From Aquibium microcysteis (GTDB lineage Bacteria > Pseudomonadota > Alphaproteobacteria > Rhizobiales > Rhizobiaceae): DNA of 64,000 bases. The number at the start of each line of letters is the position of its first letter. Position 1 is the first letter of the stretch. Made by a program: the position numbers and the translations under genes. The stretch covers positions 733,001 through 797,000 of the forward strand of contig NZ_CP061080.1 in assembly GCF_014495845.1 (NCBI RefSeq). Direction: 5' to 3'. The notes below the pieces were generated by a model that saw only the letters and a program-made list of their open reading frames with translations, made no database searches and was not told where the DNA came from. Positions 14,362 through 64,000 of this stretch are shown here, piece after piece.

Positions 14362-15420
14362 TCAGGCGAAGACCCGGCCCGATCGCGCCGTGCCGGAGGG
14401 CGAAGCCGAGGCATAGACGCAGTCCAGAACCTCCGCGACCGCCGTGAACTGCAGGCAGTCCGGATCGAAACCGCCCGCCTCGACCTTACCCAGCCAGTGC
14501 AGCGCGGCGCGCCCGCCCCAGTCGTCGGGTCCCGAGACCTGCGTGGCCGCGCTCGTTCCGGTCAGGAGTTCGGCGGTGAAGTCGTAGAACGAGCCGCCGA
14601 CATTGGCGAAGCGGGCCGCCGCACGCGTGCCATGGAAGGTCGCGGAGATGTCGGCCTCGCGGCCGACGTCGAGCTTCCACGAGCAGGCGAAGCGGATCAG
14701 CGTGCCGTCCTGCGTCACCAGCGTGGCGAAGGCGAGGTCCTCCACCGTCGCGTCGCTCCCGTCCCAGGGCTCGCCGGCGCGCATGAGATGGCCCGTGACC
14801 GAAGCGACCGCCGGAAAGTCCCGGGACCAGAGCGCGAGATCGACGAGATGGATGCCAAGATCCATCAGGCATCCCCCACCCGACAGGCGGCGATCGTAGA
14901 ACCAGGGTTTGTCGGGGCCGTAGCCGTTGTGGAAGACGAGATCGATCATGTGGACCCTGCCCAGCGATCCGTCGCCGATCAGGCCCCGGATGTGCCGCAT
15001 GGACGCCGTGTGCCGGTAGGACAGGTCGAGTCCGAGCGGCAGATCATTGCGTCTTGCGGCGTCCACCACGGCGGCCACCTCCGCCGCGGAGCGGCCGAGC
15101 GGCTTCTGGCAGAAGACGGCGACGCCGGCCTCCATCGCCCGGATCGACTGCTCCGCATGCAGGGCGCTCGGGGTCGCGACGACGACCGCGTCGACGCCAT
15201 GGTTGAGCATGGCGTCGAGGCTCTCGAAGGTCCGGGCGTCACCGGCGATCGTCTGCGCCTGCGCGACCATGTCCGTGTTCGGGTCGACGAGCGCGGCCGC
15301 TTCTGCAAGACCGGTGCCCAGCAAAGCCTTCATCCGCGACAGGCCGATCCAGCCCACCCCGAGGAAGCCGAGCCGCACCGGGGCGGCTCCGGTGGCGACG
15401 GCTCTCCGGGGCACGGTCAT
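14362..15420 (-). CDS. Gfo/Idh/MocA-family oxidoreductase
   Basis: Encodes 352 residues. A Rossmann fold near residue 17 (RLGFLGVGWIGLSRMK), the Gfo/Idh/MocA motif EQSIRAMEAGVAVFCQKPLG with its conserved Lys near residue 105, and the downstream segment GGCLMDLGIHLVDLALW with the usual catalytic-region Asp/His are present. These enzymes oxidise or reduce sugars, inositols and sugar nucleotides with NAD(P). Its ATG overlaps the stop of the upstream dehydrogenase by four bases, so the two form one operon. The sugar substrate cannot be read from sequence. Confidence 0.85.
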   Translation of the reverse strand: MTVPRRAVATGAAPVRLGFLGVGWIGLSRMKALLGTGLAEAAALVDPNTDMVAQAQTIAGDARTFESLDAMLNHGVDAVVVATPSALHAEQSIRAMEAGVAVFCQKPLGRSAAEVAAVVDAARRNDLPLGLDLSYRHTASMRHIRGLIGDGSLGRVHMIDLVFHNGYGPDKPWFYDRRLSGGGCLMDLGIHLVDLALWSRDFPAVASVTGHLMRAGEPWDGSDATVEDLAFATLVTQDGTLIRFACSWKLDVGREADISATFHGTRAAARFANVGGSFYDFTAELLTGTSAATQVSGPDDWGGRAALHWLGKVEAGGFDPDCLQFTAVAEVLDCVYASASPSGTARSGRVFA

Positions 15421-16418
15421 GGCATCACCACCAGCGACTTGACGAAACCTTCCGGCCGCGTGGCGGCAAGCTCCAGGGCTTCGTTCAGCCGGTCGAACGG
15501 CAGAACGTGGGTGTAGAGCGGCGCCGGATCGAGTTGCCCCGCCGCCACCAGCGTGACCGCTTCGCGGGTACCCTCCAGGTAGACTGCGGGATCGCGCTCG
15601 TGTGCGTTGATGACGTCGAGTCCGCGCCAGTTCCAGAGCTGCATGTCGACCCGGCGCGGCGCATCCTGGTGGTAGCCGGCGATGACGAGGCGGCCGCGTG
15701 TGGTGGTCAGTGTCGCCGCCAGATCGAGCGGTTCCTGGTAGCCCGTGGCCTCGATCACGCAGTCGAACAGGCCATCTCTGGCGATCTCGGCGGCCGAGGC
15801 GGCGGCGTCTTCCGTGGCGACGGCCATGGCGGCGCCCATGTCGAGCGCCCGCGCCCGCGCCTGCGGCTTGCGGCCGACCGCAACAACCCGGGCGCCGGCC
15901 AGCGACGCCAGCCGGACGAGGAGCAGGCCCATGAAGCCGAGCCCGACCACGGCCACCGTTTCGCCCGGCTGCAGCCGCGCCCGCCGGATCACGTTGACCG
16001 CGCAGCCGAGCGGCTCGCCCGGCAGCGGCGCGTCACCGAGCGCGGAGGGCAGCGGAACCGCCTGGTCCGCCGGGCCGACATCGAACTCCGCATAGCTCTT
16101 CTGGAACAGCGTCGTGACGCGGTCGCCTTCCCGCAGCTGGCGAACGTCCCGGCCGACCGCGTCGACGACGCCCCAGCCTTCGTGACCGAGATCGCCCGGC
16201 GCAGTCGGGAAACGCATCCATTCCGGACCCGTCCAGGGCGTCACGTTGGACGCGCAGACGCCGCAGCCTTCGAGCCGGACCCGCACCTCGCCGGGTCCCG
16301 GTTCAGGCATCGGAACCTCCCGCAGATCGATGGTGCGCGGTCCGGTCAGGACGGCCGCCCGCATCACGCGCGAGGACACGCGCTCCCGCCGGGTGTCCGT
16401 CTTGGCATGCATGTTCAT
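15417..16418 (-). CDS. Zinc-type medium-chain dehydrogenase, probably sugar/polyol-linked
   Basis: Encodes 333 residues from ATG 16418, picked because GGAGAA lies four bases upstream; a TTG at 16430 is less likely. The GroES-like domain has the catalytic zinc ligand region GCGVCASNV and GHEGWG. The Cys-rich structural zinc loop is missing, so only the catalytic metal is expected. The Rossmann motif VVGLGFMGLLLVRLA lies near residue 165. The C-terminal GRLVIAGYHQDAPR segment resembles dehydrogenases acting on modified sugars. It is the first gene of the minus-strand pair, preceded by an EcfG-type promoter. Confidence 0.82.
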   Translation of the reverse strand: MNMHAKTDTRRERVSSRVMRAAVLTGPRTIDLREVPMPEPGPGEVRVRLEGCGVCASNVTPWTGPEWMRFPTAPGDLGHEGWGVVDAVGRDVRQLREGDRVTTLFQKSYAEFDVGPADQAVPLPSALGDAPLPGEPLGCAVNVIRRARLQPGETVAVVGLGFMGLLLVRLASLAGARVVAVGRKPQARARALDMGAAMAVATEDAAASAAEIARDGLFDCVIEATGYQEPLDLAATLTTTRGRLVIAGYHQDAPRRVDMQLWNWRGLDVINAHERDPAVYLEGTREAVTLVAAGQLDPAPLYTHVLPFDRLNEALELAATRPEGFVKSLVVMP

Positions 16419-16445
16419 CGGCTTCTCCAATCATTGCGTTCGCCG

Positions 16446-16470
16446 AACAGCCGCAGGCCGAAGATGTTCC
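16446..16470 (-). promoter_or_regulatory. EcfG-type promoter for the minus-strand dehydrogenase pair
   Basis: On the minus strand GGAAC is followed after 16 bases by TGTT, which fits GGAAC-N18-TT. It sits 28 bases upstream of the ATG at 16418. The extended -35 context CCGGAACAT is shared with the divergent promoter at 16662. The rest of the 310-base gap (16419-16728) contains no supported gene. Confidence 0.5.
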
Positions 16471-16661
16471 GGAAGAAGATGATGAAGATGAAGCGTGCCG
16501 GGACGCCGCGCGGGCCGGAACCGGCCGCGGACCCGATGCGCGGCCGGGCCACGAAGCGCCTTCCGTCGAACGGCATCGGGCGCCGCGGGTTCCGCCGACG
16601 GGGGTCGTGCGGGGCGCGGCGACCCGCTTCTTCCTCTTCAACCTCATCAGCAGCTTCATCC

Positions 16662-16686
16662 GGAACATTCCGCTGCCGGCCCGGTT
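16662..16686 (+). promoter_or_regulatory. EcfG-type promoter for the plus-strand glycan operon
   Basis: GGAAC (16662-16666), 16 bases, then GGTT (16683-16686), matching the alphaproteobacterial general-stress sigma consensus. The predicted start near 16693 leaves a 36-base leader with AAGGGA eight bases before the GTG at 16729. It would drive the eight-gene run up to 26065. Confidence 0.6.
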
Positions 16687-16728
16687 CGGTGCGACGAGAA
16701 GTGGTCGCAAACGGCAAGGGAATTCAGG

Positions 16729-17838
16729 GTGGTAAGCACAGTACTCGTCACGGGCGGCATGGGTTTCATCGGACGCCATCTCGTCTCGGAACTTCTCCGC
16801 CACGGCTACCGCGTCCGCGTTCTGGACAGTCTCGTGGAACAGGTGCACCCGGCCGGCGAGCCGGCGCGCATCGACGGAGCGGAGTACGTCATCGGCGACG
16901 TTCGCGACGCGGACCTCTGTCGCCGGGCGGTGCGGGGGGTCGATCACGTCGCGCACCTGGCAGCCGAAGTCGGCGTCGGTCAGTCCATGTACGAAATCGC
17001 CCGCTATGTCGGCGGCAACGAGTTCGCGACGGCCGTGCTGCTCGAGGCGCTGATCGAGCATCCGGTGAAATCGATCGTCGTCGCCTCGTCGATGAGCGTC
17101 TACGGCGAGGGCCGGTACCGCGACGCCGACGGGCGGCTGCACGACCAGGTCCGCCGCCACCGCGATATGATCGGGACGGGCCGGTGGGACCCGCGCGACA
17201 AGGAGGGCAGGCGGCTCGAGCCGGTGCCCACGGACGAGGACAAGCCCGTCGACCTCGCCTCCATCTATGCGCTGACCAAGTTCGCCCAGGAGCGGGCGGT
17301 GATGATCTTCGGCGCCGCCTACGACGTGCCGGTCGTGGCGCTGCGCCTGTTCAACGTGTTCGGTGCCGGCCAGGCGCTGTCCAATCCCTACACCGGCGTC
17401 CTTGCCAATTTCGCGTCGCGCCTGGCCGGCGGCCAGCGGCCGACCGTTTTCGAGGATGGCGAGCAGCGGCGCGACTTCGTCCATGTCGAGGACGTGGCTC
17501 GGGCCTTCCGCCTGGCGCTGGCGAGCCCGGCCGCGGCAGGCGAGGTGGTCAACATCGGCAGCGGCCGCTCCTACTCCATCGCTCGGGTGGCGGAACTGCT
17601 GGCTTCGGCAATGGGCGTGCCGGACCTCCAGCCGGAAATCCTCGGCAAGGCGCGCAGCGGCGACATCCGCCACTGCTTCGCCTCGACGGCCCGCGCCCGC
17701 GACCTCCTGGGCTTTACCGCGGAGCATCGGCTCGAAACGTCGCTCGAGCCCTTCGTCGAATGGGTGCGCCGCGAGACGGTCGTCGACCGCAACGGCCAGA
17801 TGCGCAGCGAACTCGAACGGCGGGGGCTGGTGGCATGA
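16729..17838 (+). CDS. NAD-dependent sugar-nucleotide epimerase/dehydratase
   Basis: Encodes 369 residues from a GTG preceded by AAGGGA. An extended SDR enzyme with the NAD motif GGMGFIGRHL at the N-terminus, Ser/Tyr/Lys catalytic elements (VASSMSVYGEG; SIYALTKFAQE) and a sugar-nucleotide-binding C-terminal half (FEDGEQRRDFVHVEDVARAF). It resembles dTDP-glucose 4,6-dehydratase or UDP-glucose epimerase relatives, and supplies an activated sugar. First gene of the eight-gene plus-strand operon; its stop overlaps the next ATG (ATGA). Confidence 0.88.
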   Translation: MVSTVLVTGGMGFIGRHLVSELLRHGYRVRVLDSLVEQVHPAGEPARIDGAEYVIGDVRDADLCRRAVRGVDHVAHLAAEVGVGQSMYEIARYVGGNEFATAVLLEALIEHPVKSIVVASSMSVYGEGRYRDADGRLHDQVRRHRDMIGTGRWDPRDKEGRRLEPVPTDEDKPVDLASIYALTKFAQERAVMIFGAAYDVPVVALRLFNVFGAGQALSNPYTGVLANFASRLAGGQRPTVFEDGEQRRDFVHVEDVARAFRLALASPAAAGEVVNIGSGRSYSIARVAELLASAMGVPDLQPEILGKARSGDIRHCFASTARARDLLGFTAEHRLETSLEPFVEWVRRETVVDRNGQMRSELERRGLVA

Positions 17839-19859
17839 ATGCGCGCCTGCATCCGGCCCGGTCCGGCTTCGGTTTCGTCGAATGGTTCCGTCCGGGCGAG
17901 TACGGACGGACAGAGGACGTGCTGCCCGAAATCGTCGCCTCCGGCGCGACGCATCTGCGCACGCATCTCTCCTGGGCGGAGTATCTGGCGCCAGGCGGGG
18001 AGGAGTGGTTCGACTGGCTGCTGCCGAAACTGTCGGCCGAACTCGACGTTCTGCCCTGCATCCACTACACGCCGCCGTCGCTGTCGCGGACGGGCAAGGC
18101 GACCGGCGCTCCGCGTCGCCTCAAGGACTACGCCGACTTCGTCGACCACGTCATCGACCGTTACGGGCGGCATTTCCGGCACATCGAACTCTGGAACGAG
18201 CCCAACAACCTGCTCGACTGGGACTGGCGTGAGGACAAGGACTTCTCGCTGTTCTGCGAGATGGTGGGCGGCGCCGCCTACTGGGTGCAGAAACGCGGCT
18301 GGAAGGCAGTGCTCGGCGCGCCGTGCCCGTTCGATCCGGCCTGGATCAACCTGATGGGTCAGCGCGGCGTCCTCGACGTCGTCTCCGCGGTCGGCTTCCA
18401 CGGCTTTCCGGGCACCTGGGACAGCGACGAGGGCAGCTGGAACGGCTGGGACCTGCATCTGGGCGAGCTGCGCCGCATCGTCGACGTCTACAACCCCGGG
18501 GCGGAGCTGTGGGTCACCGAAACCGGCTACTCGACCTGGCGCCAGGACGAGGTGGAGCAGGTGCGCCGCTTCATGGCGGCGCTGAGCGTGCCGGCCGACC
18601 GGGTCTACTGGTACAGCTGGCGCGACGTGCCGCACGACGTGGCGGTGCAGGAAGGCCTCTGGTTCGACCCCCGCCACTACCACCTCGGTGCGACCGAGCA
18701 TGGCGGCCGGCCGAAGCTTCTGGCGCGGCTCCTGCAGGAGGGCGGGGTACGCCGGGTGCAGGAGCTCTTCACCCTCGCCAAGCCCTCGATCGCCTCCAGC
18801 GTCGCTCCGGTGGTGATCACCGGCGGCAGCGGCTTCATCGGCAGCAACCTCGCCTCGTCCTACCTGCGCGAAGGCAGGGACGTCGTCATCTTCGACAGCC
18901 TCGCCCGACCCGGTGTCGATTCCAATCTGGCCTGGCTGCGCGACCAGTTCGGCGACAGGGTCCACTCCTGCATCGCCGACGTGCGCGACGCCGCGCAGGT
19001 GCGCGACGCCGTGCGCGACGCCAGCGTTGTGTTCCATCTCGCCGGACAGACGGCGGTGACGACCAGCCTCGATCATCCCATCGAGGACATGGAGGTGAAT
19101 GTTCGCGGCACGCTGAACGTGCTCGAAGGCGCGCGCGCCGCCCCGCGCCGCCCTGGCGTCATCTTCGCCAGCACCAACAAGGTCTACGGAGCGCTCGAGG
19201 ACATCGACACGGTGGCGACGGCGAAGTGTCACCAGCCGGCCGATCCCCAGATCGCCAGGAACGGCATCGGCGAGGACCGCAGCCTCGACTTCTGCACGCC
19301 CTACGGATGCTCCAAGGGCGCCGCCGACCAGTACGTCCTCGACTATGCCAAGTCCTACGGCATGCCGGCGGCGGTGCTGCGGATGAGCTGCATCTACGGC
19401 CCGCGCCAGTTCGGCACCGAGGATCAGGGCTGGGTCGCCCACTTCCTGATCAGGGCGCTCCGCGGCGAGAGGATCACCATCTTCGGCGACGGCCATCAGG
19501 TCCGCGACATCCTCGACGTCGACGACGCGGTGGCCGCCTACCGGGCGCTGCACGCGAACGTCGGCCGGCTGAGCGGCCAGGCCTTCAATCTCGGCGGCGG
19601 CCCGTCCAACGCCGTCAGCCTGTCCATGGTTCTGGCCGAGATGGCACGCATCATCGGCGAACCGGTCGAGACCGCGCACGAGCCCTGGCGGACCGGCGAC
19701 CAACTCTACTTCGTCGCCGACACCGCGCGCCTGCAGGCTGCGACCGGCTGGCAGCCGACCATCCCGTGGAAACGGGGCGTCCTGCGCCTCGCCCGCTGGC
19801 TGCAGGCGGAGCGCTTCGCCGATGCACCGGCGGCAAGGCAGAGGAGGCTCTCGGCATGA
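17835..19859 (+). CDS. Fusion of clan GH-A glycoside hydrolase and CDP-paratose 2-epimerase-like SDR
   Basis: Encodes 674 residues. Residues 1-310 are a clan GH-A TIM-barrel hydrolase: acid/base Glu122 in LWNEPNN and probable nucleophile Glu229 in VTETGY. Residues 325-660 are a complete extended SDR: NAD motif TGGSGFIGSN (329-338), STNKVYG (446-452, typical of RfbE/CDP-tyvelose epimerases) and Tyr490-x3-Lys494 in PYGCSKGAADQY. There is no signal peptide, so the hydrolase half should be cytosolic. Both active sites look intact and no internal start with a good ribosome site was seen. ATG 17835 overlaps the previous stop; the last bases overlap the next gene. Confidence 0.88.
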   Translation: MNARLHPARSGFGFVEWFRPGEYGRTEDVLPEIVASGATHLRTHLSWAEYLAPGGEEWFDWLLPKLSAELDVLPCIHYTPPSLSRTGKATGAPRRLKDYADFVDHVIDRYGRHFRHIELWNEPNNLLDWDWREDKDFSLFCEMVGGAAYWVQKRGWKAVLGAPCPFDPAWINLMGQRGVLDVVSAVGFHGFPGTWDSDEGSWNGWDLHLGELRRIVDVYNPGAELWVTETGYSTWRQDEVEQVRRFMAALSVPADRVYWYSWRDVPHDVAVQEGLWFDPRHYHLGATEHGGRPKLLARLLQEGGVRRVQELFTLAKPSIASSVAPVVITGGSGFIGSNLASSYLREGRDVVIFDSLARPGVDSNLAWLRDQFGDRVHSCIADVRDAAQVRDAVRDASVVFHLAGQTAVTTSLDHPIEDMEVNVRGTLNVLEGARAAPRRPGVIFASTNKVYGALEDIDTVATAKCHQPADPQIARNGIGEDRSLDFCTPYGCSKGAADQYVLDYAKSYGMPAAVLRMSCIYGPRQFGTEDQGWVAHFLIRALRGERITIFGDGHQVRDILDVDDAVAAYRALHANVGRLSGQAFNLGGGPSNAVSLSMVLAEMARIIGEPVETAHEPWRTGDQLYFVADTARLQAATGWQPTIPWKRGVLRLARWLQAERFADAPAARQRRLSA

Positions 19860-21019
19860 GGTCCGCCGTCTCCCGGGACGCCTTTCCGCTCCATGCGCCG
19901 CCGATGCGATGGCCGAACAGAGACGATGGGACGGTGATCCTGATGACGGTCGATGCCGTCGGGGGTGTCTGGCGCTACGCGATGGAACTCGCCCGCGCCT
20001 TGCCGGCGCAGGGATATCGAACCGTCTTCGCCGTCCTCGGTCCGGCACCGAGCGCCGCACAGGAACAGGAAGCGCGACGCCTTGGCGAACTGGTCTGGCT
20101 CGACCAGCCCCTCGACTGGATGGTGGACGGACCGGAACGGCTGTCCAAGCTTGGACCGGCGCTGGCCGCGCTCGCCAGAGAATGCGACGCCGCCCTGGTC
20201 CATCTCAACGCTCCGTCGCAGGTCGTCGGCCTCGACGTCACCGTTCCGGTCGTCAGCGTCGTCCATTCCTGCCTTCCGACCTGGTGGAGAGCGGTGAAGG
20301 GAACGCCGCTGCCCCGGGAATGGCAGTGGCACCAGCGGCTGAATCAGGCCGGCATGGAGGCCGCGGATGCCGTCGTCGTTCCGACCGGCAGCTACGCGGA
20401 GGCGATCGAAGCCTGCTACGATCCGCCGTTCCGCATCGAGGTGGCATACAACGGCATCGCCGCTTTCCTTGCTGGCGCGCCACGCGAGCCCTTCCTGTTC
20501 GCCGCCGGCCGCTGGTGGGACGAAGGCAAGAACGGCGACGTCCTCTCCCAGGCGGCCCCCTCGATCGACTGGCCAGTGGTGATGGCCGGCCCCCTGGAGA
20601 GCCCGACCGGCCAGCGCCGTGAGCTTCCCGATGTGCGCAGCCCCGGCGCGCTGGGGCACGATCGCGTGCTCGATCACGTGCGGCGCGCCGGCATCGTCGT
20701 CTCGCCGTCGATCTACGAGCCTTTCGGTCTCGCCGCCCTCGAAGGTGCCCGGGCCGGCGCGGCCCTGCTTCTGGCCGACATCCCGACCTACCGGGAACTG
20801 TGGAAGGGGGCGGCGCTGTTCTTCGATCCGGCCGATCCCGCCGATCTCGCCGCCAAGGCCAATCTGCTGATCCGCGACGGCGCGCTGCGCGGTGCCAACG
20901 GTTCGCTGGCTCTGGCACGGTCGAGGCGGTTCACGCCCGACCGGCAGGCCGAGGCCATGGCCGAAATCTATTCCCGCTGCCTGGCGAAGACCGCGCCGGC
21001 TGCGAAGGAGGCCTTCTGA
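19856..21019 (+). CDS. Glycosyltransferase, GT4-like
   Basis: Encodes 387 residues. The N-terminal half begins DAVGGVWRYAMELARAL, the acceptor-binding start of GT-B glycosyltransferases. The C-terminal donor domain carries SPSIYEPFGLAALEGARAGAALLLADIPTYRELW, the E-x7-E type signature of family GT4. Soluble, with no membrane helix. It overlaps both neighbours by ATGA or single-base junctions. The donor and acceptor are unknown. Confidence 0.87.
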   Translation: MRSAVSRDAFPLHAPPMRWPNRDDGTVILMTVDAVGGVWRYAMELARALPAQGYRTVFAVLGPAPSAAQEQEARRLGELVWLDQPLDWMVDGPERLSKLGPALAALARECDAALVHLNAPSQVVGLDVTVPVVSVVHSCLPTWWRAVKGTPLPREWQWHQRLNQAGMEAADAVVVPTGSYAEAIEACYDPPFRIEVAYNGIAAFLAGAPREPFLFAAGRWWDEGKNGDVLSQAAPSIDWPVVMAGPLESPTGQRRELPDVRSPGALGHDRVLDHVRRAGIVVSPSIYEPFGLAALEGARAGAALLLADIPTYRELWKGAALFFDPADPADLAAKANLLIRDGALRGANGSLALARSRRFTPDRQAEAMAEIYSRCLAKTAPAAKEAF

Positions 21020-22131
21020 TGCGTTTCCTGTTCTACACGCACTCTCTGGTCTCCGACTGGAATCACGGCAACGCGCATTTCCTGCGCGGCCTGATGCGGG
21101 CGCTGCAGGCGAAGGGGCACGACGCCCTGGCGCTCGAGCCGGCGGACGGCTGGAGCCGGGCGAACCTCGCCGCGGAGGGCGGCATGCCGCCCTCAGAGCG
21201 CTTCGCACAGGCCTTTCCGGGCCTGCGCTGGCAGGATTACGGGCCGGAGTTCGATCACGAGGCGGCCTGCGCGGATGCGGACGTCGTTGTGGTGCACGAA
21301 TGGACGGATCCGGCGCTGGTCGCTCGCATCGGCCGGCTGCGCCGCGCCGGAGGGCGGTTCCTGCTCTATTTCCACGACACCCACCATCGGGCCGTGTCGC
21401 GGGAGCCGGAGATCGCCGGGCTGCATCTCGACGGCTACGACGGGGTTCTGGCCTTCGGCGACACCCTGAAAGAGCGCTACCTCGCGGCCGGCTGGGGCCG
21501 CCAGGTGGAGACGTTCCACGAGGCTGCCGACGTCGCGCTGTTCCGGCCGATGCCCGACGTCGAGCCCGAGCATGAGCTCGTCTGGATCGGCAACTGGGGC
21601 GACGGCGAGCGCAGCGCGGAACTGCGCAGCTTCCTCATCCAGCCCGCGCGCCGGCTCGGCCTCGACGCCACCGTCCGCGGCGTGCGCTATCCGGACGAGG
21701 CACTGGCGTCGCTGCGCGAGGCCGGCATCCGCTATGGCGGCTGGATCGCCAATCACGAGGTTCCGCGGGCCTTCGCCCGCCACCGCTTCACGGTGCACGT
21801 CCCGCGGCGGCCCTATGTGGAGGCGCTGCCGGGCATTCCCACCATCCGCGTCTTCGAGGCGCTCGCCTGCGGCATCCCGCTGATCTGCGCGCCCTGGGAG
21901 GATCGCGAGGGCCTGTTCCGGCCGGGCCGCGACTATCTCGTCGCCCGCGGCGAGGACGAGATGACCGGGCACATGCGGGCCTTGCGCCACGATCCGGACC
22001 TGCGTCGCGTCCTGGCGGCGAGCGGCCTCGAGACGATCCTTGCCCGCCACACCTGCGATCACCGCGCCGACCAGCTGCTCGGCCTGGTGGCGCGCCATGG
22101 GAACCAGCCGGTTGCGGAGGCCGCCGAATGA
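21019..22131 (+). CDS. CgeB-like glycosyltransferase (copy 1)
   Basis: Encodes 370 residues. The GT-B fold starts FLFYTHSLVSDWNHGNAHFLRG. The C-terminal part has GIPTIRVFEALACGIPLICAPWEDREGLFRPG, the donor-site pattern of the CgeB/spore-maturation glycosyltransferase group. It contains a His-rich patch (YFHDTHHRAVS) near residue 117. Soluble. First of three consecutive genes of this type. Confidence 0.82.
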   Translation: MRFLFYTHSLVSDWNHGNAHFLRGLMRALQAKGHDALALEPADGWSRANLAAEGGMPPSERFAQAFPGLRWQDYGPEFDHEAACADADVVVVHEWTDPALVARIGRLRRAGGRFLLYFHDTHHRAVSREPEIAGLHLDGYDGVLAFGDTLKERYLAAGWGRQVETFHEAADVALFRPMPDVEPEHELVWIGNWGDGERSAELRSFLIQPARRLGLDATVRGVRYPDEALASLREAGIRYGGWIANHEVPRAFARHRFTVHVPRRPYVEALPGIPTIRVFEALACGIPLICAPWEDREGLFRPGRDYLVARGEDEMTGHMRALRHDPDLRRVLAASGLETILARHTCDHRADQLLGLVARHGNQPVAEAAE

Positions 22132-23222
22132 AAATCGCGTTCTACGGATCAAGCCTGCTCTCGTCCTACTGGAACGGCGCGGCCACCTACTATCGCGGCA
22201 TGCTCAGAGCGCTGTCGGAGATCGGCTACGACGTCACCTTCTACGAATCCGATGCCTTCGACCGCCAGCAGCATCGCGACATCGAGCCGCCGGACTGGTG
22301 CCGGGTCGTGGTCTACGAAGCCAGTGCCGAGGGGCTGGCGCGGGCCGCCGCCGAGGCGCGCGATGCCGACATCGTGGTCAAGGCGAGCGGCTGCGGCTAC
22401 GAGGACGACGCGCTGCTGGACCTGTTGATCAGGCACTGCGCGGAACGGGCACTGATGCTGTTCTGGGACGTCGACGCCCCGGCGACCCTGGCCGAACTCG
22501 CCGGCGCCCCCGACCACCCGCTGCATCGCCAGCTCGCCCGCATCGACATGGTGCTGACCTATGGCGGCGGCGATCCGGTGGTCAACGGCTACCGCCGCTT
22601 CGGCGCCGCCGACTGCGTGCCGATCTACAACGCCGTCGACCCGCGCGACCATCACCCGGTCCCGCCCGATCCGCGCTTCGCGGCGGACCTCTCCTTTCTC
22701 GGCAACCGCCTGCCGGACCGGGAGACCCGGGTGGAGCTCTTCTTCCTCGACGCCGCCGCGCGCCTGCCGCAGCGCCGGATGCTGCTCGGGGGATCGGGCT
22801 GGGGCGACAAGGCCATGCCCGCCAATGTCCGCGCCATCGGCCACGTGCCCACGGCGGATCACAACGCCTTCAACTGCTCGGCGCTGGCCGTTCTCAACAT
22901 CAGCCGCGACAGCATGGCCTCGATGGGCTTCTCGCCCGCCACGCGCGTCTTCGAGGCCGCCGGGGCAGGGGCCTGCCTCATCACCGACGACTGGGCCGGG
23001 CTCGACCTGTTCCTGAAGGACGGCGAGGAGGTGCTGAAGGCGCGCGACGGCCAGGAGGTTGCCGAGAGGCTGGAGGGACTGACGACGGAGCGCGCCCGCG
23101 CGATCGGCGAGCGCGCGCGCCTGCGCGTGCTGGCCGAGCACACCTACACCGCGCGTGCCGACCGTTTCGCCGCCGTCATCCGGACGCTCCTGCAGCGCCG
23201 CAACCTCGAGGCGGCCGAATGA
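22128..23222 (+). CDS. CgeB-like glycosyltransferase (copy 2)
   Basis: Encodes 364 residues. It starts KIAFYGSSLLSSYWNGAATYYRG and continues with FYESDAFDRQQHRDI, a strongly conserved CgeB-family segment. The donor-site end reads SPATRVFEAAGAGACLITDDWAGLDLFL. Overlaps both neighbours by four bases. Probably transfers a sugar to the same growing glycan as its neighbours; the substrate is not deducible. Confidence 0.85.
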   Translation: MKIAFYGSSLLSSYWNGAATYYRGMLRALSEIGYDVTFYESDAFDRQQHRDIEPPDWCRVVVYEASAEGLARAAAEARDADIVVKASGCGYEDDALLDLLIRHCAERALMLFWDVDAPATLAELAGAPDHPLHRQLARIDMVLTYGGGDPVVNGYRRFGAADCVPIYNAVDPRDHHPVPPDPRFAADLSFLGNRLPDRETRVELFFLDAAARLPQRRMLLGGSGWGDKAMPANVRAIGHVPTADHNAFNCSALAVLNISRDSMASMGFSPATRVFEAAGAGACLITDDWAGLDLFLKDGEEVLKARDGQEVAERLEGLTTERARAIGERARLRVLAEHTYTARADRFAAVIRTLLQRRNLEAAE

Positions 23223-24337
23223 GGCCGCTGTCGATCGTCTTCGTCGGACTGTCGCTGTCCTCCTCCTGGGGGAACGGCCATGCCACGACCTATCGTGCGC
23301 TGCTGTCCGGTCTCGGCCGGCTCGGCCACGAGGTGCTGTTCCTGGAGCGCGAGCAGTCCTGGTACCTGGAGAACCGCGACCTCGCCGACCCGGACTATTG
23401 CACGCTCCGCTTCTACCGCAGTGTCGACGACCTCGAAACGCACCGCGCGACCCTGAGGTCGGCCGACGCCGTCATCGTCGGCTCCTACGTGCCGGACGGG
23501 ATCGAGGTGATCGACCGGATCGCCGGGATGGGGCCGCGGCAGCTCTGCTTCTACGACATCGACACGCCCGTCACGCTCGCCCGCCTCGCGCGGGGGGAGG
23601 AGACCTACGTCGCGCCGCACCAGCTTCCCGGCTTCGACGTCGTCTTCTCCTTCTCCGGCGGACGGGCGCTGGAGATCCTGGAAGGGGATTTCGGGGTGCG
23701 GCGGGCCGCGCCGCTGTTCTGCTCGGTCGACGCGGGCGCCTACCGCCCGAGCGGCGAGGCCAGGACCTGGGACCTCGGCTACCTCGGTACCTACAGCCCC
23801 GACCGCCAGCCGGCGCTCGACGAACTGCTGCTGCGGACCGCCCGGCTGATGCCCGAGCGCCGCTTCGTGGTGGCAGGCCCGCAATACCCGGAATCGATCC
23901 GCTGGCCCGACAATGTCGAGCGCATCGACCATCTGCCGCCGGAACGCCACGCGTCCTTCTACAGCCGCCAGCGCTACACGCTGAACGTGACCCGCAGCGA
24001 CATGATCGCCGTCGGCTGGTCGCCGAGCGTGCGCCTGTTCGAGGCGGCGGCCTGTGCCACGCCGGTCATCAGCGACCGCTGGGACGGGCTCGGCGACTTC
24101 TTCCCCGAGCCGGAGGCGATCGTCACCGCCGCCACGGCCGAGGAGGTGGTCGCCATTCTCTCCAGGCCGACGAAGGCCGCTCTCGACCAGGGACTGGCGG
24201 CGATGCGCATTGCCCTTGCCAGCCACACCGGCCTGGTCCGTGCGGAGGAACTGGCGGCGGCGCTCGTCCCGGACCGGCCGCAAGCAACGAAACCTGTCTC
24301 AACCCATTCGACGGAGGCGCATCATGCAGCGCGATAA
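23219..24337 (+). CDS. CgeB-like glycosyltransferase (copy 3)
   Basis: Encodes 372 residues. N-terminal IVFVGLSLSSSWGNGHATTYR and donor-site end SPSVRLFEAAACATPVISDRWDGLGDFF mark the same family as the preceding two genes. The three copies are clearly diverged from one another, which suggests different specificities rather than recent duplication. The last codons run 14 bases into the next gene. Confidence 0.85.
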   Translation: MRPLSIVFVGLSLSSSWGNGHATTYRALLSGLGRLGHEVLFLEREQSWYLENRDLADPDYCTLRFYRSVDDLETHRATLRSADAVIVGSYVPDGIEVIDRIAGMGPRQLCFYDIDTPVTLARLARGEETYVAPHQLPGFDVVFSFSGGRALEILEGDFGVRRAAPLFCSVDAGAYRPSGEARTWDLGYLGTYSPDRQPALDELLLRTARLMPERRFVVAGPQYPESIRWPDNVERIDHLPPERHASFYSRQRYTLNVTRSDMIAVGWSPSVRLFEAAACATPVISDRWDGLGDFFPEPEAIVTAATAEEVVAILSRPTKAALDQGLAAMRIALASHTGLVRAEELAAALVPDRPQATKPVSTHSTEAHHAAR

Positions 24338-25319
24338 CGGAGTTCGCTCGAACGGCACCAGCCTCGTGGCCGGTGGCGCCGGTTTTCTCGGCTCGCATCT
24401 CGTGGAGCGTCTCCTGCAGGAAGGGCGCAGGGTCGTCTGCATCGACAGTTTTCTGTCCGGGACGGGAGACAACATCGCCCGCTTCGCGTCGCATCCCGGC
24501 TTCCGGCTGGTGCGCCAGGACATCCAGCGGCCGCTGTCCATAGACGAAGAGGGGGTCGACGAGATCTACAATCTCGCCTGCGCCGCCTCGCCGCCGCGCT
24601 ACCAGGCCGATCCGCACCACACCATGATGACCAGCGTCATCGGCACCTCGAACCTGCTCGAACTGGCGGCGGCCCGCGGCGCGCGCTTCCTGCAGGCCTC
24701 GACCAGCGAGATCTACGGCGACCCCGAGGTGCATCCGCAGACGGAGGACTATGTCGGCAGCGTCAATTGCACCGGCCCGCGGGCCTGCTACGACGAAGGC
24801 AAGCGCGCCGCGGAGACCATCTGCTTCGACTTCCTGCGGGTGGGCCGCGCCGACGCGCGCATCGCCCGCATCTTCAACACCTACGGCCCGCGGATGCGCG
24901 CCGACGACGGCCGGATCGTCTCCAACTTCATCGTCCAGGCGCTTGCGGGCGAACGGATGACGGTTTTCGGCGACGGCAGCCAGACCCGCTCCTTCTGCTA
25001 TGTCAGCGACCTCATCGACGGGCTGGTGCGCCTCATGCGCGTCGACCCGAATCCCGGCTGCCCCGTCAATCTGGGCAATCCCGGGGAATTCACCGTCGAG
25101 GAACTGGCCCGCATCGTCTCGCGCAAGATACCGACGGCGCGGGGCATCCGCAGGCTGCCGCTCCCGCAGGACGACCCGCGCCGGCGCCAGCCCGACATCT
25201 CGCGGGCCCGCGCCCTGCTCGGCTGGGAGCCGAAGGTCGCGCTCGACGAGGGCCTCGCCCACACCATCGCCTGGTTCAGCGAGCAACGGGCCGGCAGCAA
25301 GCTGGAGGCTGCCGAGTGA
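24324..25319 (+). CDS. UDP-glucuronate decarboxylase-like SDR (UDP-xylose synthase type)
   Basis: Encodes 331 residues from ATG 24324, with GGAGG eight bases upstream. NAD motif AGGAGFLGSHLVERL, catalytic Ser/Thr in ASTSEIYGDPEVHPQ and Tyr-x3-Lys in GPRACYDEGKRAAE. The last two segments are diagnostic for UDP-xylose synthase/UDP-glucuronate decarboxylases. It would make UDP-xylose or a related pentose donor for the adjacent glycosyltransferases. Confidence 0.88.
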   Translation: MQRDNGVRSNGTSLVAGGAGFLGSHLVERLLQEGRRVVCIDSFLSGTGDNIARFASHPGFRLVRQDIQRPLSIDEEGVDEIYNLACAASPPRYQADPHHTMMTSVIGTSNLLELAAARGARFLQASTSEIYGDPEVHPQTEDYVGSVNCTGPRACYDEGKRAAETICFDFLRVGRADARIARIFNTYGPRMRADDGRIVSNFIVQALAGERMTVFGDGSQTRSFCYVSDLIDGLVRLMRVDPNPGCPVNLGNPGEFTVEELARIVSRKIPTARGIRRLPLPQDDPRRRQPDISRARALLGWEPKVALDEGLAHTIAWFSEQRAGSKLEAAE

Positions 25320-26065
25320 TGAGCCGGAACAACGCGTCGAAGAAGATCGAGCACCGCATCCGCGAACTGGGGCCATGGTTCCAGAACATGGCCATCGGCG
25401 GCGTCGAGACGGCGCCGGACCACTTTCTCGGCGACTATCCGCGCGCCAAATGGGAAGGCTTCGCGCATGTGCTGCCGGACGATCTCGAGGGCCGGTCGGT
25501 CCTGGAGATCGGCTGCAATGCGGGCTTCTATGCGCTGGAGATGAAGCGGCGCGGTGCGGGCGACGTGGTCGCCATCGACCATGACGAGCGCTACCTCGAG
25601 CAGGCCCGGCTCGCCGCCGGGGTCGCCGGCGTCGAGATCGATTTCAGGCGGATGTCGGTCTACGACCTGCCGCGGCTGTCCCGGCGGTTCGATCTGGTCC
25701 TGTTCATGGGCGTCTTCTACCACCTGCGCCATCCGCTTCTGGCGCTCGACATGATCCACGAGCATGTCGCCGACGATCTGCTCCTGTTCCAGTCGCTGTC
25801 GCGCGGCAGCGGAGCGGCCGAACCGGTCGCCGCCGATTATTCCATCGACGAATGGACCGTGTTCGACCGGAGCGATTTCCCCAAGCTGCATTTCGTCGAG
25901 CATCGCTATGCGGGCGATCCGACCAACTGGTTCGTGCCGAACGTGGCGGCGATGCAGGCGATGCTGCGCAGCTCGGGCTTCCGGATCGTCGCCCATCCGG
26001 AACGCGAGGTCTTCCTCTGCACGAAGACGGCGCGGCCTCCGATGGTCGAGCCGCCGCCCTGCTGA
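25319..26065 (+). CDS. SAM-dependent methyltransferase (CmoB-like fold)
   Basis: Encodes 248 residues; ATG 25319 is used (GTG at 25316 also possible), with GGAGG ten bases upstream. The N-terminal ELGPWFQNMAIGG and DHFLGDYPRAKWE segments resemble the CmoB/DUF1698 group. The SAM motif I VLEIGCNAGFYALEMKRRG lies near residue 60, and a later FMGVFYHLRHPL matches the motif IV region. Position at the end of a glycan operon suggests methylation of a sugar hydroxyl (inference), not a tRNA role. Confidence 0.85.
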   Translation: MSRNNASKKIEHRIRELGPWFQNMAIGGVETAPDHFLGDYPRAKWEGFAHVLPDDLEGRSVLEIGCNAGFYALEMKRRGAGDVVAIDHDERYLEQARLAAGVAGVEIDFRRMSVYDLPRLSRRFDLVLFMGVFYHLRHPLLALDMIHEHVADDLLLFQSLSRGSGAAEPVAADYSIDEWTVFDRSDFPKLHFVEHRYAGDPTNWFVPNVAAMQAMLRSSGFRIVAHPEREVFLCTKTARPPMVEPPPC

Positions 26066-26299: not shown

Positions 26300-26455
26300 G
26301 TGGTGCAGCACGTCCAGACGAGGGAAACCTATCCCCTCCACCAGCCGAAGCCGGTATCCGATCGCCGTCTTGCGGCGCTCGACCGCATCGCGCTCGCGGT
26401 CGCCACCGTAATGGCGCTCGGCCCGCTCACCACCTACGCGGTGATCGGCGGATGA
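26300..26455 (+). CDS. Small single-helix membrane protein
   Basis: Encodes 51 residues from GTG 26300 (GTG 26303 is equivalent), with GAGGAG eight bases upstream. A polar N-terminus (about 30 residues) is followed by one hydrophobic segment, [22 protein letters not shown], reaching the C-terminus. The stop overlaps the next ATG. No family recognised; coupling to the SRPBCC gene and the upstream EcfG-type promoter suggest a stress role. Confidence 0.55.
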   Translation: MVQHVQTRETYPLHQPKPVSDRRLAALDRIALAVATVMALGPLTTYAVIGG

Positions 26456-62250: not shown

Positions 62251-63750
62251 ATGAAGACAGTGGACACGATTGCCCGGGTTCGGCGTGCCTTTCATGTGCA
62301 GGGGTGGTCGCTCAAGCGGATCTGCCGCGAGCTGCACGTGTCGCGCAACACGGTCCGCAAGATCCTCAGGTCCGACGAGACCTCGTTCTCCTACGAGCGC
62401 GAGCTGCAACCGAAGCCGAAGATCGGACCGTGGAAGGATCAACTCGACGGGCTCCTGAACGGCAATCTCGGCAAGGCGGCGCGCGAGCAACTGACGCTGA
62501 TCCGGATCTATGAGGAACTGCGCGCGCTTGGTTATGAGGGCGGCTACGACGCGGTGCGCCGGTATGCGAAGAGCTGGGCGAAGACGAGAGGATCGGCGAC
62601 GGCCGAGGCCTACGTGCCGCTGCTCTTCGCGCCGGGCGAAGCCTACCAGTTCGACTGGAGCCACGAGATCGTCCTGCTCGCCGGCGTGACGGTGACCGTG
62701 AAGGTCGCCCACGTCCGGCTCTGCCACAGCCGCATGATGTTCGTGCGGGCCTATCCGCGCGAGACGCAGGAGATGGTGTTCGACGCCCACGACCGGGCCT
62801 TCGCCTTCTTCGGCGGCGCCTGCACGCGCGGCATCTACGACAACATGAAGACGGCGGTGGAGACGGTCTTCGTCGGCAAGGAGCGGCAGTACAACCGTCG
62901 CTTCCTGCAGATGTGCAGCCACTATCTGGTCCAGCCGGTTGCCTGCACGCCGGCCTCGGGCTGGGAGAAGGGGCAGGTCGAGAACCAAGTTGGCCTGGTG
63001 AGGGAGCGCTTCTTCACGCCTCGGCTGCGCTTCAGGAGCTACGAGGAGCTGAACGCCTGGTTGCTCGACAAGTGCGTGGCCTACGCCAAGGCCCATCGCC
63101 ATGTCGACCAGCCGGAGCGCACCATCTGGGACGTGTTCGAGGAGGAGCGCGGCAAGCTGGTCGAGTATCGCGGCCGTTTCGACGGCTTCCACACGGTTCC
63201 CGCCTCGGTCACGAAGACCTGCACCGTGCGGTTCGACAACAACAAATACTCGGTGCTCTCGACCGCAGTCGGCCGCCCAGTCGAGATCCAGGCCTATGCC
63301 GATCGCATCGTCGTGCGCCAGGACGGCACGATCGTGGGCGAGCATGCCCGTTCGTTCGGTCGCAACCAGACGGTCTACGATCCGTGGCACTACGTCCCTG
63401 TGCTGGCGCGCAAGCCCGGCGCGCTGCGCAACGGTGCGCCGTTCCAGGGCTGGGAACTGCCATCGGCGATGGAGCGGGTCAGGCGCCGGCTGAAGGCTGC
63501 CGACGACGGCGACCGGCAGATGGTGTCGATCCTGACGGCGGTGCTGTCGGATGGGCTCGATGCCGTCGAGATCGCCTGCCAGCAGGCGCTTGCCGAGAAC
63601 GTCTGCTCGTCCGCCGTCATTCTCAACATCCTGGCCCGCCGGCGCGATCCGGCGCCGGCCGTGACCATCCTCACACCCGACGCGCTGCGCTTGGCGATCG
63701 AGCCGCAGGCCGACTGCGCCCGTTACGACAGCCTCAGGAGGGCAAGCTGA
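62251..63750 (+). CDS. istA: IS21-family transposase IstA
   Basis: Encodes 499 residues. N-terminal HTH (VQGWSLKRICRELHVSRNTVRKIL), then a DDE integrase core with Asp in YQFDWSHE (about 135), Asp in GIYDNMKTAV (about 197) and Glu in GQVENQVGLV (about 244), and a C-terminal beta domain (VRFDNNKYSVL). All three catalytic acids are intact, so the element may be active. Confidence 0.93.
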   Translation: MKTVDTIARVRRAFHVQGWSLKRICRELHVSRNTVRKILRSDETSFSYERELQPKPKIGPWKDQLDGLLNGNLGKAAREQLTLIRIYEELRALGYEGGYDAVRRYAKSWAKTRGSATAEAYVPLLFAPGEAYQFDWSHEIVLLAGVTVTVKVAHVRLCHSRMMFVRAYPRETQEMVFDAHDRAFAFFGGACTRGIYDNMKTAVETVFVGKERQYNRRFLQMCSHYLVQPVACTPASGWEKGQVENQVGLVRERFFTPRLRFRSYEELNAWLLDKCVAYAKAHRHVDQPERTIWDVFEEERGKLVEYRGRFDGFHTVPASVTKTCTVRFDNNKYSVLSTAVGRPVEIQAYADRIVVRQDGTIVGEHARSFGRNQTVYDPWHYVPVLARKPGALRNGAPFQGWELPSAMERVRRRLKAADDGDRQMVSILTAVLSDGLDAVEIACQQALAENVCSSAVILNILARRRDPAPAVTILTPDALRLAIEPQADCARYDSLRRAS

Positions 63751-64000
63751 TGGAACGCACCCAGGTTCTGGACCTGATGGGAACGCTGAAGCTCTACGGC
63801 ATGCGCAGCGCCTACGATGAGATCATGACGACCGCCATCAAGCGTCAGCACGAGCCGCCGAGGGTCGTCGGCGATCTGCTGTCGGTCGAGATCGCCGAGA
63901 AGCAGGCGCGCTCCATCAAGTACCAGCTCACCGTCGCCAAGCTGCCGCTGGCCAAGGACATCGACGACTTCGACTTCGCCGGCACGCCCGTCAACGAGAC
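63750..64000 (+). CDS. istB: IS21-family helper ATPase IstB, 5' part
   Basis: ATG 63750 overlaps the istA stop by one base. The visible 83 residues start MERTQVLDLMGTLKLYGM and continue LLSVEIAEKQARSIKYQLTVAKLP, the N-terminal domain of IstB. The AAA+ motor and stop codon lie beyond the window. Confidence 0.9.
   Translation, partial: MERTQVLDLMGTLKLYGMRSAYDEIMTTAIKRQHEPPRVVGDLLSVEIAEKQARSIKYQLTVAKLPLAKDIDDFDFAGTPVNE

What the first reader, a model, noticed from the sequence alone, without database searches (positions are those of the whole stretch)
16419..26065. Glycan-assembly cluster with stress-type promoters and no exporter
Seen: ten tightly coupled genes (two dehydrogenases divergent from an epimerase, a hydrolase-epimerase fusion, a GT4-like and three CgeB-like glycosyltransferases, a UDP-xylose synthase-like enzyme and a methyltransferase), all predicted soluble. 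No Wzx, Wzy, ABC exporter, lipid-carrier transferase or secretion signal is present. Each divergent operon has a GGAAC-N16-NGTT promoter. Inference: a stress-induced methylated glycoside, storage or protectant glycan, or glycosylated macromolecule made in the cytosol. I know of no described product for this combination.
Basis: partly seen in the sequence, partly recalled or inferred. Interest (0 to 1): 0.8.

Follow-up and report, generated by a model that had tools for sequence, protein, structure and literature searches.

The report
Stress-controlled cytosolic sugar-compound assembly line
Ten neighbouring genes, placed behind stress-type promoters and kept in the same order in many soil and marine alphaproteobacteria, appear to build an unknown methylated sugar compound inside the cell with no export genes beside them, which makes them a good lead to an undescribed stress protectant.

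Summary
Ten overlapping genes (14362-26065; the given range omits the two dehydrogenases) form two divergent operons, each behind a GGAAC-N16-NGTT site. That site recurs toward the epimerase in 61 and toward the dehydrogenase in 59 of 64 divergent homologous regions (controls 1-3%). The core keeps its order in 75 of 80 named loci; all ten products look soluble; none of the 29 recurrent flank families is an exporter of glycans. Refined roles: a true UDP-xylose-synthase relative, a CDP-tyvelose-2-epimerase-type domain fused to a clan GH-A glycosidase, a TIGR04290 methyltransferase. New: (1) 17 of 27 unnamed relatives (not the window's genome) have an inositol-phosphate synthase, in those read with a phosphatase and a circularly permuted glycosidase; (2) the dehydrogenase B and a B12 radical-SAM gene (TIGR04295) never co-occur: 5 and 21 of those 27, 0 both, 1 neither; TIGR04295 in 0 of 70 named genomes. 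Best reading: a general-stress pathway making a small O-methylated, pentose-containing glycoside in the cytosol, cyclitol-based only in some lineages. No product was found in ten paper searches; no expression or chemical data exist here.

The parts
14362..15420 (-). A: Gfo/Idh/MocA-family dehydrogenase
   Evidence: Pfam PF01408/PF22725; best solved relatives 6jw6 'Dehydrogenase' 2.4e-27, DgpA 1.6e-23, inositol 2-dehydrogenase 8.3e-18; QKP and DxGxHxxD motifs conserved
15417..16418 (-). B: zinc-type alcohol dehydrogenase
   Evidence: PF00107/PF08240 (for 15417-16430); best NCBIfam scyllo-inosose 3-dehydrogenase, 97 bits against a cut-off of 450, so not a member; ATG start called
16446..16470 (-). 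EcfG-like promoter site of the A-B operon (GGAAC-N16-TGTT), 52 bases before B
16569..16593 (-). second site toward B with exact CGTT box, 175 bases before B
16662..16686 (+). EcfG-like promoter site of the C-J operon (GGAAC-N16-GGTT), about 68 bases before the GTG start of C
   Evidence: site present toward C in 61 of 64 divergent regions
16729..17838 (+). C: NDP-sugar epimerase/dehydratase (SDR), C4-epimerase-like
   Evidence: PF01370; best solved 6wjb, 6wj9, MoeE5; GGxGFIG and YxxxK
17835..19859 (+). D: N-terminal clan GH-A-type glycosidase (residues about 1-315) fused to a CDP-tyvelose-2-epimerase-type domain (about 320-674)
   Evidence: 9rl0 1.1e-76 and 1orr 4.6e-75 for the C part; AlphaFold model and PslG match for the N part; E122 and E229 invariant in 33 sequences
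19856..21019 (+). E: GT4 glycosyltransferase
   Evidence: PF13439/PF00534; 43 of 387 residues at least 98% conserved in 79 sequences; no solved relative at 1e-8
21019..22131 (+). F: CgeB-like glycosyltransferase 1
   Evidence: PF13524 2.3e-39
22128..23222 (+). G: CgeB-like glycosyltransferase 2 (used as the marker of the module)
   Evidence: PF13524 1.1e-38
23219..24337 (+). H: CgeB-like glycosyltransferase 3
   Evidence: PF13524 5.8e-32
24324..25319 (+). I: UDP-glucuronate decarboxylase (UDP-xylose synthase) relative
   Evidence: human UXS1 2b69 3.5e-106; Y156 and K160 conserved
25319..26065 (+). J: SAM methyltransferase, TIGR04290 family (over its curated cut-off)
   Evidence: 375.8 bits, cut-off 300

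Best explanation
A general-stress-response (EcfG-type) biosynthetic unit that builds a small, soluble, O-methylated heteroglycoside in the cytosol. Inferred steps: UDP-glucuronate is decarboxylated by I to UDP-xylose; C and the C-terminal half of D epimerise NDP-sugars (C4 type and C2 type); E (GT4) makes the first glycosidic bond on a soluble acceptor and F, G and H each add a sugar; J O-methylates; A and B oxidise and re-reduce one carbon of the glycoside (a stereo-inversion); the glycosidase half of D trims, transfers or recycles the product. In many relatives an inositol-3-phosphate synthase and a histidine-phosphatase-family protein sit in the same unit, so there the acceptor or one residue is probably a cyclitol; in the window's organism no such source was found. 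Most likely role: a compatible-solute or desiccation-protectant glycoside kept in the cell. Shown: families, order, promoter sites, conservation, lack of exporter genes in the unit, co-occurrence patterns. Inferred: every substrate, the product, its place and its role.
For: Conserved paired EcfG-like sites (61 and 59 of 64). Core C-D1-D2-E-F-G-H-I order in 75 of 80 named loci, with A and B divergent in front in 67. Stress-type genes in the flanks of 81 stretches, named from one scanned representative per family: DUF1003 in 23, an ECF sigma with a PhyR-sigma2-like domain in 14 (13 within three genes), Mn catalase in 9, topoisomerase IB in 5; and UDP-glucose 6-dehydrogenase (source of the UXS substrate) in 12. 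Catalytic motifs kept. The marker gene G and TIGR04290 coincide: G in 14 of 14 genomes with TIGR04290 over its cut-off and in 0 of 38 hand-picked ones without. Inositol-phosphate synthase in 11 of those 14 against 7 of 38 (Fisher 1.1e-4), beside the unit, and in 3 named genomes in a separate locus with phosphatase and short glycosidase; its best solved relative is an inositol-3-phosphate synthase, 1gr0, 3e-150.
Against: No expression or metabolite data. The window genome (no PF01658; no IolE) and 24 of 27 searched named fusion-type genomes lack the inositol-phosphate synthase, as do 10 of the 27 unnamed module genomes, so a cyclitol core cannot be general. The -10 box is mostly GGTT or TGTT, not the published CGTT. 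The 38 negatives were picked by hand from one sample and genomes are related, so P values overstate. Polysaccharide-pyruvyltransferase and FrhB-like genes lie by the inositol genes in L124, L159 and L160, which would fit an envelope product.
Confidence: 0.52

Rival explanations
1. The unit makes the sugar part of an envelope glycolipid or surface polysaccharide, and lipid carrier, flippase or exporter genes lie elsewhere in the genome.
For: CgeB- and GT4-type enzymes can be peripheral membrane proteins (general knowledge); polysaccharide-pyruvyltransferase and FrhB-like genes lie next to the inositol genes in L124, L159 and L160; the fold of the D glycosidase is nearest PslG, which I recall from a polysaccharide operon.
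Against: No lipid-carrier transferase, flippase, polymerase or exporter in the ten genes or among the 29 recurrent flank families; the recurrent neighbours are largely stress and respiratory genes. The 692 flank genes outside those families were not scanned and the rest of the genome was not searched for exporters.
Confidence: 0.22
2. The unit makes a methylated storage polysaccharide kept in the cytosol, like the mycobacterial methylglucose lipopolysaccharide.
For: GT4 plus several GTs, a methyltransferase and a glycosidase, with no exporter in the unit.
Against: Several different sugar-nucleotide enzymes point to a mixed short glycoside rather than a homopolymer; no polymerase or branching enzyme in the ten genes.
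Confidence: 0.12
3. The unit glycosylates a protein or another macromolecule in the cytosol.
For: Soluble GTs only; CgeB is named after a spore-surface gene of Bacillus (recalled).
Against: No single acceptor-protein gene is part of the conserved order (a small unknown protein recurs in 22 of 81 stretches, and was not excluded); inositol-phosphate synthase and phosphatase in relatives suit a small molecule.
Confidence: 0.08
4. The dehydrogenase pair (A+B) and the B12 radical-SAM protein are unrelated optional decorations that merely sort by lineage, not replacements for one step.
For: Genomes within a lineage are not independent; three module genomes have neither: G545 (83% complete), G413/L039 and G794/L055 (no B in its locus; no TIGR04295; B not searched genome-wide).
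Against: Both types occur within one family (f1, and f2); exactly one of the two is present in 26 of 27 unnamed module genomes.
Confidence: 0.35

Closest known systems
Mycothiol pathway (inositol-phosphate synthase + GT4 MshA + phosphatase; actinobacteria; pathway recalled)
   Same: Cytosolic small glycoside of inositol made from an INO1-type synthase, a GT4 enzyme and a phosphatase; the synthase in relatives scores 555 bits on TIGR03450, under its cut-off of 638, and 3e-150 to 1gr0
   Different: Here three further CgeB-type GTs, sugar-nucleotide enzymes and a methyltransferase; the window genome itself lacks the synthase
Mycobacterial methylglucose lipopolysaccharide (intracellular methylated polysaccharide; recalled)
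   Same: Methylated glycan made in the cytosol by GTs and SAM methyltransferases
   Different: Different enzymes; here mixed sugar-nucleotide enzymes and stress-sigma-type promoters
NCBIfam families TIGR04290 (methyltransferase) and TIGR04295 (B12_rSAM_oligo)
   Same: J is over the TIGR04290 cut-off; the radical-SAM versions are over the TIGR04295 cut-off
   Different: Both are hypothetical-equivalog names without a product; one search found 0 papers with TIGR04290 and one search listed 4 papers with 0 occurrences of TIGR04295. The model name alone hints at an oligosaccharide
PslG and other clan GH-A glycosidases (GH39)
   Same: Best Foldseek match of the D glycosidase half (5bx9, E 4.7e-15, 18% identity)
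   Different: No Pfam glycosidase match; fused to an epimerase; a circularly permuted form exists in relatives
Plant galactosyl cyclitols such as ciceritol (recalled; search listing only)
   Same: Methylated-cyclitol oligosaccharides linked with desiccation
   Different: Plant pathway with other enzymes; only an analogy

Membership tests
EcfG (general stress response) regulon | GGAAC-N16-CGTT-type promoter | tested here: met
   Met in the relaxed form: GGAAC-N15..17-NGTT in 61 and 59 of 64 regions; the exact CGTT form only in 4 and 11 of 64
EcfG (general stress response) regulon | Transcription depends on EcfG | not testable with these tools
   No expression data; term searches of the main texts of PMC3892343, PMC3188799, PMC5830050 and PMC8092242 found no mention of such genes; their supplements could not be read
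EcfG (general stress response) regulon | ecfG, phyR and nepR in the window's genome | not tested
Wzx/Wzy or ABC-exported polysaccharide cluster | Flippase, polymerase, ABC exporter or lipid-carrier transferase in the cluster | tested here: not met
   None in the ten genes; none among the representatives of all 29 flank families found in 5 or more of 81 stretches
UDP-glucuronate decarboxylase (UXS) | Full-length match to solved UXS and YxxxK | tested here: met
   3.5e-106 over 13-321; Y156-K160 conserved
CDP-tyvelose 2-epimerase | Full-length match and catalytic YxxxK | tested here: met
   1orr 4.6e-75 over 324-657; motif conserved; activity not testable
TIGR04290 methyltransferase | Score over the curated cut-off | tested here: met
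   375.8 against 300
Glycoside hydrolase family 39 | Match to the family model | tested here: not met
   No GH family for D at E <= 1e-3 in Pfam; the fold is clan GH-A-like, so it may work like one but is not filed as GH39
Clan GH-A retaining glycosidase | (beta/alpha)8 barrel with acid/base and nucleophile Glu | tested here: met
Mycothiol pathway | Inositol-3-phosphate synthase in the genome | tested here: not met
   No PF01658 in G000
Inositol dehydrogenases IolG/IolM | Score over the curated cut-off | tested here: not met
   A 93.6 of 355 bits, B 97.1 of 450 bits

The most novel reading that the evidence does not exclude
The unit makes an undescribed class of stress protectant in alphaproteobacteria, an O-methylated xylose-containing oligoglycoside built on a cyclitol in the lineages with the inositol submodule. 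One of its steps, inversion of a sugar carbon, is done either by a two-enzyme redox pair (A+B) or by a B12-dependent radical-SAM enzyme (TIGR04295) as a non-orthologous replacement, which would make TIGR04295 a sugar epimerase rather than a methylase. Its glycosidase exists in a normal and in a naturally circularly permuted barrel form.
Probability: 0.22. Interest if true: 0.8.

Novelty: new variant of a known kind. Interest (0 to 1): 0.62.

Why it matters
A ten-gene unit with conserved order and conserved stress-type promoters but no known product is a clear gap in a well-studied group. The same ten genes lie on R. etli CFN 42 plasmid p42b (RHE_RS22255-RHE_RS22300), so a deletion and a metabolite comparison would be direct. 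If right, it adds an output to the general stress response, gives a substrate class to two hypothetical NCBI families, and offers a natural permuted barrel for study.

Tried and rejected
Rejected: inositol as a general acceptor (the window genome has neither PF01658 nor TIGR04379). Rejected: A and B as true IolG/IolM enzymes (far below cut-offs). Rejected: CmGH1 (PMC6933502, passages seen) as a characterised member of the permuted glycosidase family: it is 485 aa, and P0147 of that family has no solved relative by sequence at E <= 0.01.

Led nowhere: papers on EcfG regulons for these genes. PMC3892343 passages give the motif and no such genes; PMC3188799, PMC5830050 and PMC8092242 held none of the searched terms; PMC6599016 passages list EcfG-dependent glycosyltransferases and a glycosidase of Sphingomonas melonis whose identity with these genes could not be checked. 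Paper searches gave no product (search listings only, apart from the papers named above).

Dropped before counts: one search uses 64 of 81 stretches; left out are six in other arrangements (L025, L029, L037, L043, L077, L088), six with B and C more than 1.5 kb apart (L027, L047, L049, L057, L067, L087) and five without a called B or C (L017, L039, L055, L080, L086). The named 80 loci are the best 80 of 517 found with the fusion gene as query, so they favour the window's own type. The named genomes given to TIGR04295 searches are 70 of the 80; to PF01658, 28 of which 27 were held (L086 not held). Flank families cover 272 of 964 flank genes; the other 692 were not scanned. No genome search was left for B in G794, for the permuted glycosidase in the 13 later genomes, for ecfG/phyR, or for exporters in the window genome.
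Full report
WHAT IS THERE. Ten genes lie in two divergent arms. The - strand arm is A (Gfo/Idh dehydrogenase, 14362-15420) and B (zinc-type dehydrogenase, 15417-16418). The + strand arm is C (SDR epimerase), D (glycosidase plus epimerase fusion), E (GT4), F, G and H (CgeB-like, PF13524), I (UXS-like) and J (methyltransferase), 16729-26065. Neighbours within an arm overlap by 1-14 bases. The window lies at 733001-797000 of a 6.1-Mb single-contig genome; the best named match to D is in Aquibium sp. ELW1220, 95% identical.

PROMOTERS. GGAAC-N16-GGTT starts at 16662 on the + strand and GGAAC-N16-TGTT at 16470 on the - strand. The motif published for R. etli EcfG1 is GGAAC-N16-CGTT (PMC3892343, passages). 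Of 81 stretches, 76 have B and C called and 64 are divergent within 1.5 kb; the relaxed site (spacer 15-17, NGTT) is present toward C in 61, mostly 55-77 bases before the start, and toward B in 59. Shuffles give 1.3% and random windows of the same loci 2.8%. The exact CGTT form is present in only 4 and 11 of 64, so what is conserved is mainly a GGTT/TGTT version. Related loci are not independent, though most proteins are only about 45-80% identical to the window's.

CONSERVATION AND NEIGHBOURS. The core C-D1-D2-E-F-G-H-I is in order in 75 of 80 named loci; with A and B divergent in front in 67, and with J directly behind as well in 56. The 80 are the best of 517 found with D, from Rhizobium, Paracoccus, Rhodobacteraceae, Chelativorans and others. 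In a phylum sample TIGR04290 passes its cut-off in 14 of 398 genomes, and in a class sample the marker G is in 16 of 385, so the unit is patchy. Over the 80 loci and the window, 29 flank families occur in five or more stretches, and one representative of each was scanned with Pfam. They include DUF1003 (23 stretches), a small unknown protein (22), SDR (20), an ECF sigma with PhyR-sigma2-like similarity (14), zinc dehydrogenase (14), UDP-glucose 6-dehydrogenase (12), Mn catalase (9), topoisomerase IB (5) and several cytochrome-oxidase and response-regulator families. Transport-like ones are an ABC ATPase (12, three times within three genes) and an amino-acid permease (7, once within three genes); no flippase, polymerase or glycan exporter is among them. 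The 692 other flank genes were not scanned. On R. etli p42b the same ten genes are annotated by family names only.

THE INOSITOL SUBMODULE. In several relatives the same genes sit with an inositol-3-phosphate synthase (TIGR03450 555 bits, cut-off 638; PF01658 over cut-off; 1gr0 3e-150), a histidine-phosphatase-family protein, J and a glycosidase of about 310 aa. PF01658 is in 11 of the 14 genomes with the module and in 7 of 38 without, and in 6 of 13 further module genomes, 4 of these 6 on the same contig within about 10 kb of G. Of 27 named fusion-type genomes only 3 have it, each in a separate locus with the phosphatase and the short glycosidase. The window genome has none, nor the inositol-catabolism marker IolE. 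The cyclitol idea therefore holds at most for part of the family.

A PERMUTED GLYCOSIDASE. The short glycosidase aligns to the D glycosidase in two pieces in swapped order in 251 of 251 sequences (240 from protein searches from loci); in the printed cases D 117-300 pairs with about 5-190 and D 11-111 with about 196-295. Rotating the sequence raises the local score from 227-241 to 319-336 in the three tested (shuffles at most 60). Its model has eight strands beginning with the acid/base strand (pLDDT 81, pTM 0.84). Lengths in the two capped protein lists are mostly 301-319. Counting matches better than 1e-140 as the permuted form, it is in 14 of 79 genomes, all 14 with the inositol synthase; the weaker matches (1e-15 to 1e-24), such as the window's own inside D, are the fused form by their long open frames. 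All 41 genomes of that search that carry the module have the fused form, the permuted form or both; none of the 38 others has a match.

A MUTUALLY EXCLUSIVE PAIR. B is found in 5 of the 14 module genomes of the phylum sample, and the B12-binding radical-SAM family TIGR04295 in the other 9, none with both; A lies beside B in the loci read in full (L131, L132, L148 and the window). In the 13 further module genomes of the class sample TIGR04295 is in 12 and B in 0; the one with neither, G545, is 83% complete (the B query is known to ring). Together: 5, 21, 0 both, 1 neither, of 27; chance of no overlap 7e-5 if genomes were independent, which they are not. Among named genomes TIGR04295 is in 0 of 70 (27, 43), and 68 of these 70 have B in the locus (L039 and L055 do not). 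The radical-SAM gene sits between D2 and E in L127, L128, L129, L146 and L147, and between the fused D and E in L130; its CxxxCxxC is intact. Since both kinds occur inside one family, I read the pair and the radical-SAM protein as two ways to do one step, most simply inversion of a sugar carbon; direct evidence is lacking.

MECHANISM AND VERDICT. Best supported is a stress-regulated cytosolic pathway to a small O-methylated heteroglycoside with a UDP-xylose-derived pentose and a C2-epimerised sugar, four glycosyl transfers, and a glycosidase for trimming or turnover. The nearest known logic is mycothiol (cytosolic inositol glycoside) and, by recall, intracellular methylated polysaccharides, but the tested defining feature of mycothiol synthesis is not met in the window genome. 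I rate it a new variant of a known kind, interest 0.62.

Noticed in passing
L122:10278-11210 and ten further loci (L123, L124, L127, L128, L129, L131, L132, L158, L159, L160): A widespread protein family named beta-xylosidase is a natural circular permutation of the glycosidase half of D; 8000 homologues (the cap) were scored.
   Followed up: yes
L146:15321-16613, L127:15057-16343, L129:17930-19216: B12-binding radical-SAM gene (TIGR04295) inside the operon in genomes where the dehydrogenase B is missing.
   Followed up: yes
L124:5375-7855, L159:11600-13988, L160:5680-8068: A polysaccharide-pyruvyltransferase and an FrhB-like gene next to the inositol-phosphate synthase; a possible further tailoring pair or a sign of an envelope product.
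   Followed up: partly
L122:4007-5755 and L160:10888-12639: Proteins of about 580 aa without any Pfam match at 1e-5 lie divergent from the inositol-phosphate synthase.
   Followed up: partly
L050:1607-1870: An 87-aa protein family without Pfam match recurs beside the unit in 22 of 81 stretches.
   Followed up: no
window 14328 (- strand) and 26177 (+ strand): Further EcfG-like sites before a 74-aa ORF and before the polyketide-cyclase-like gene at 26452; the neighbourhood may be one stress island.
   Followed up: partly
window 62296-64000: A transposase-type ORF (rve and Mu-transposase C-terminal domains) followed by an overlapping ORF; I recall this as the layout of an IS21-type istA/istB pair.
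   Followed up: partly
L122:14679-15254: An ECF sigma gene with PhyR-sigma2-like similarity lies beside the inositol submodule too.
   Followed up: no
L039: The Nitratireductor luteus locus keeps only C, D, E and F; B and TIGR04295 were not found in its genome G413, perhaps a decaying copy.
   Followed up: partly
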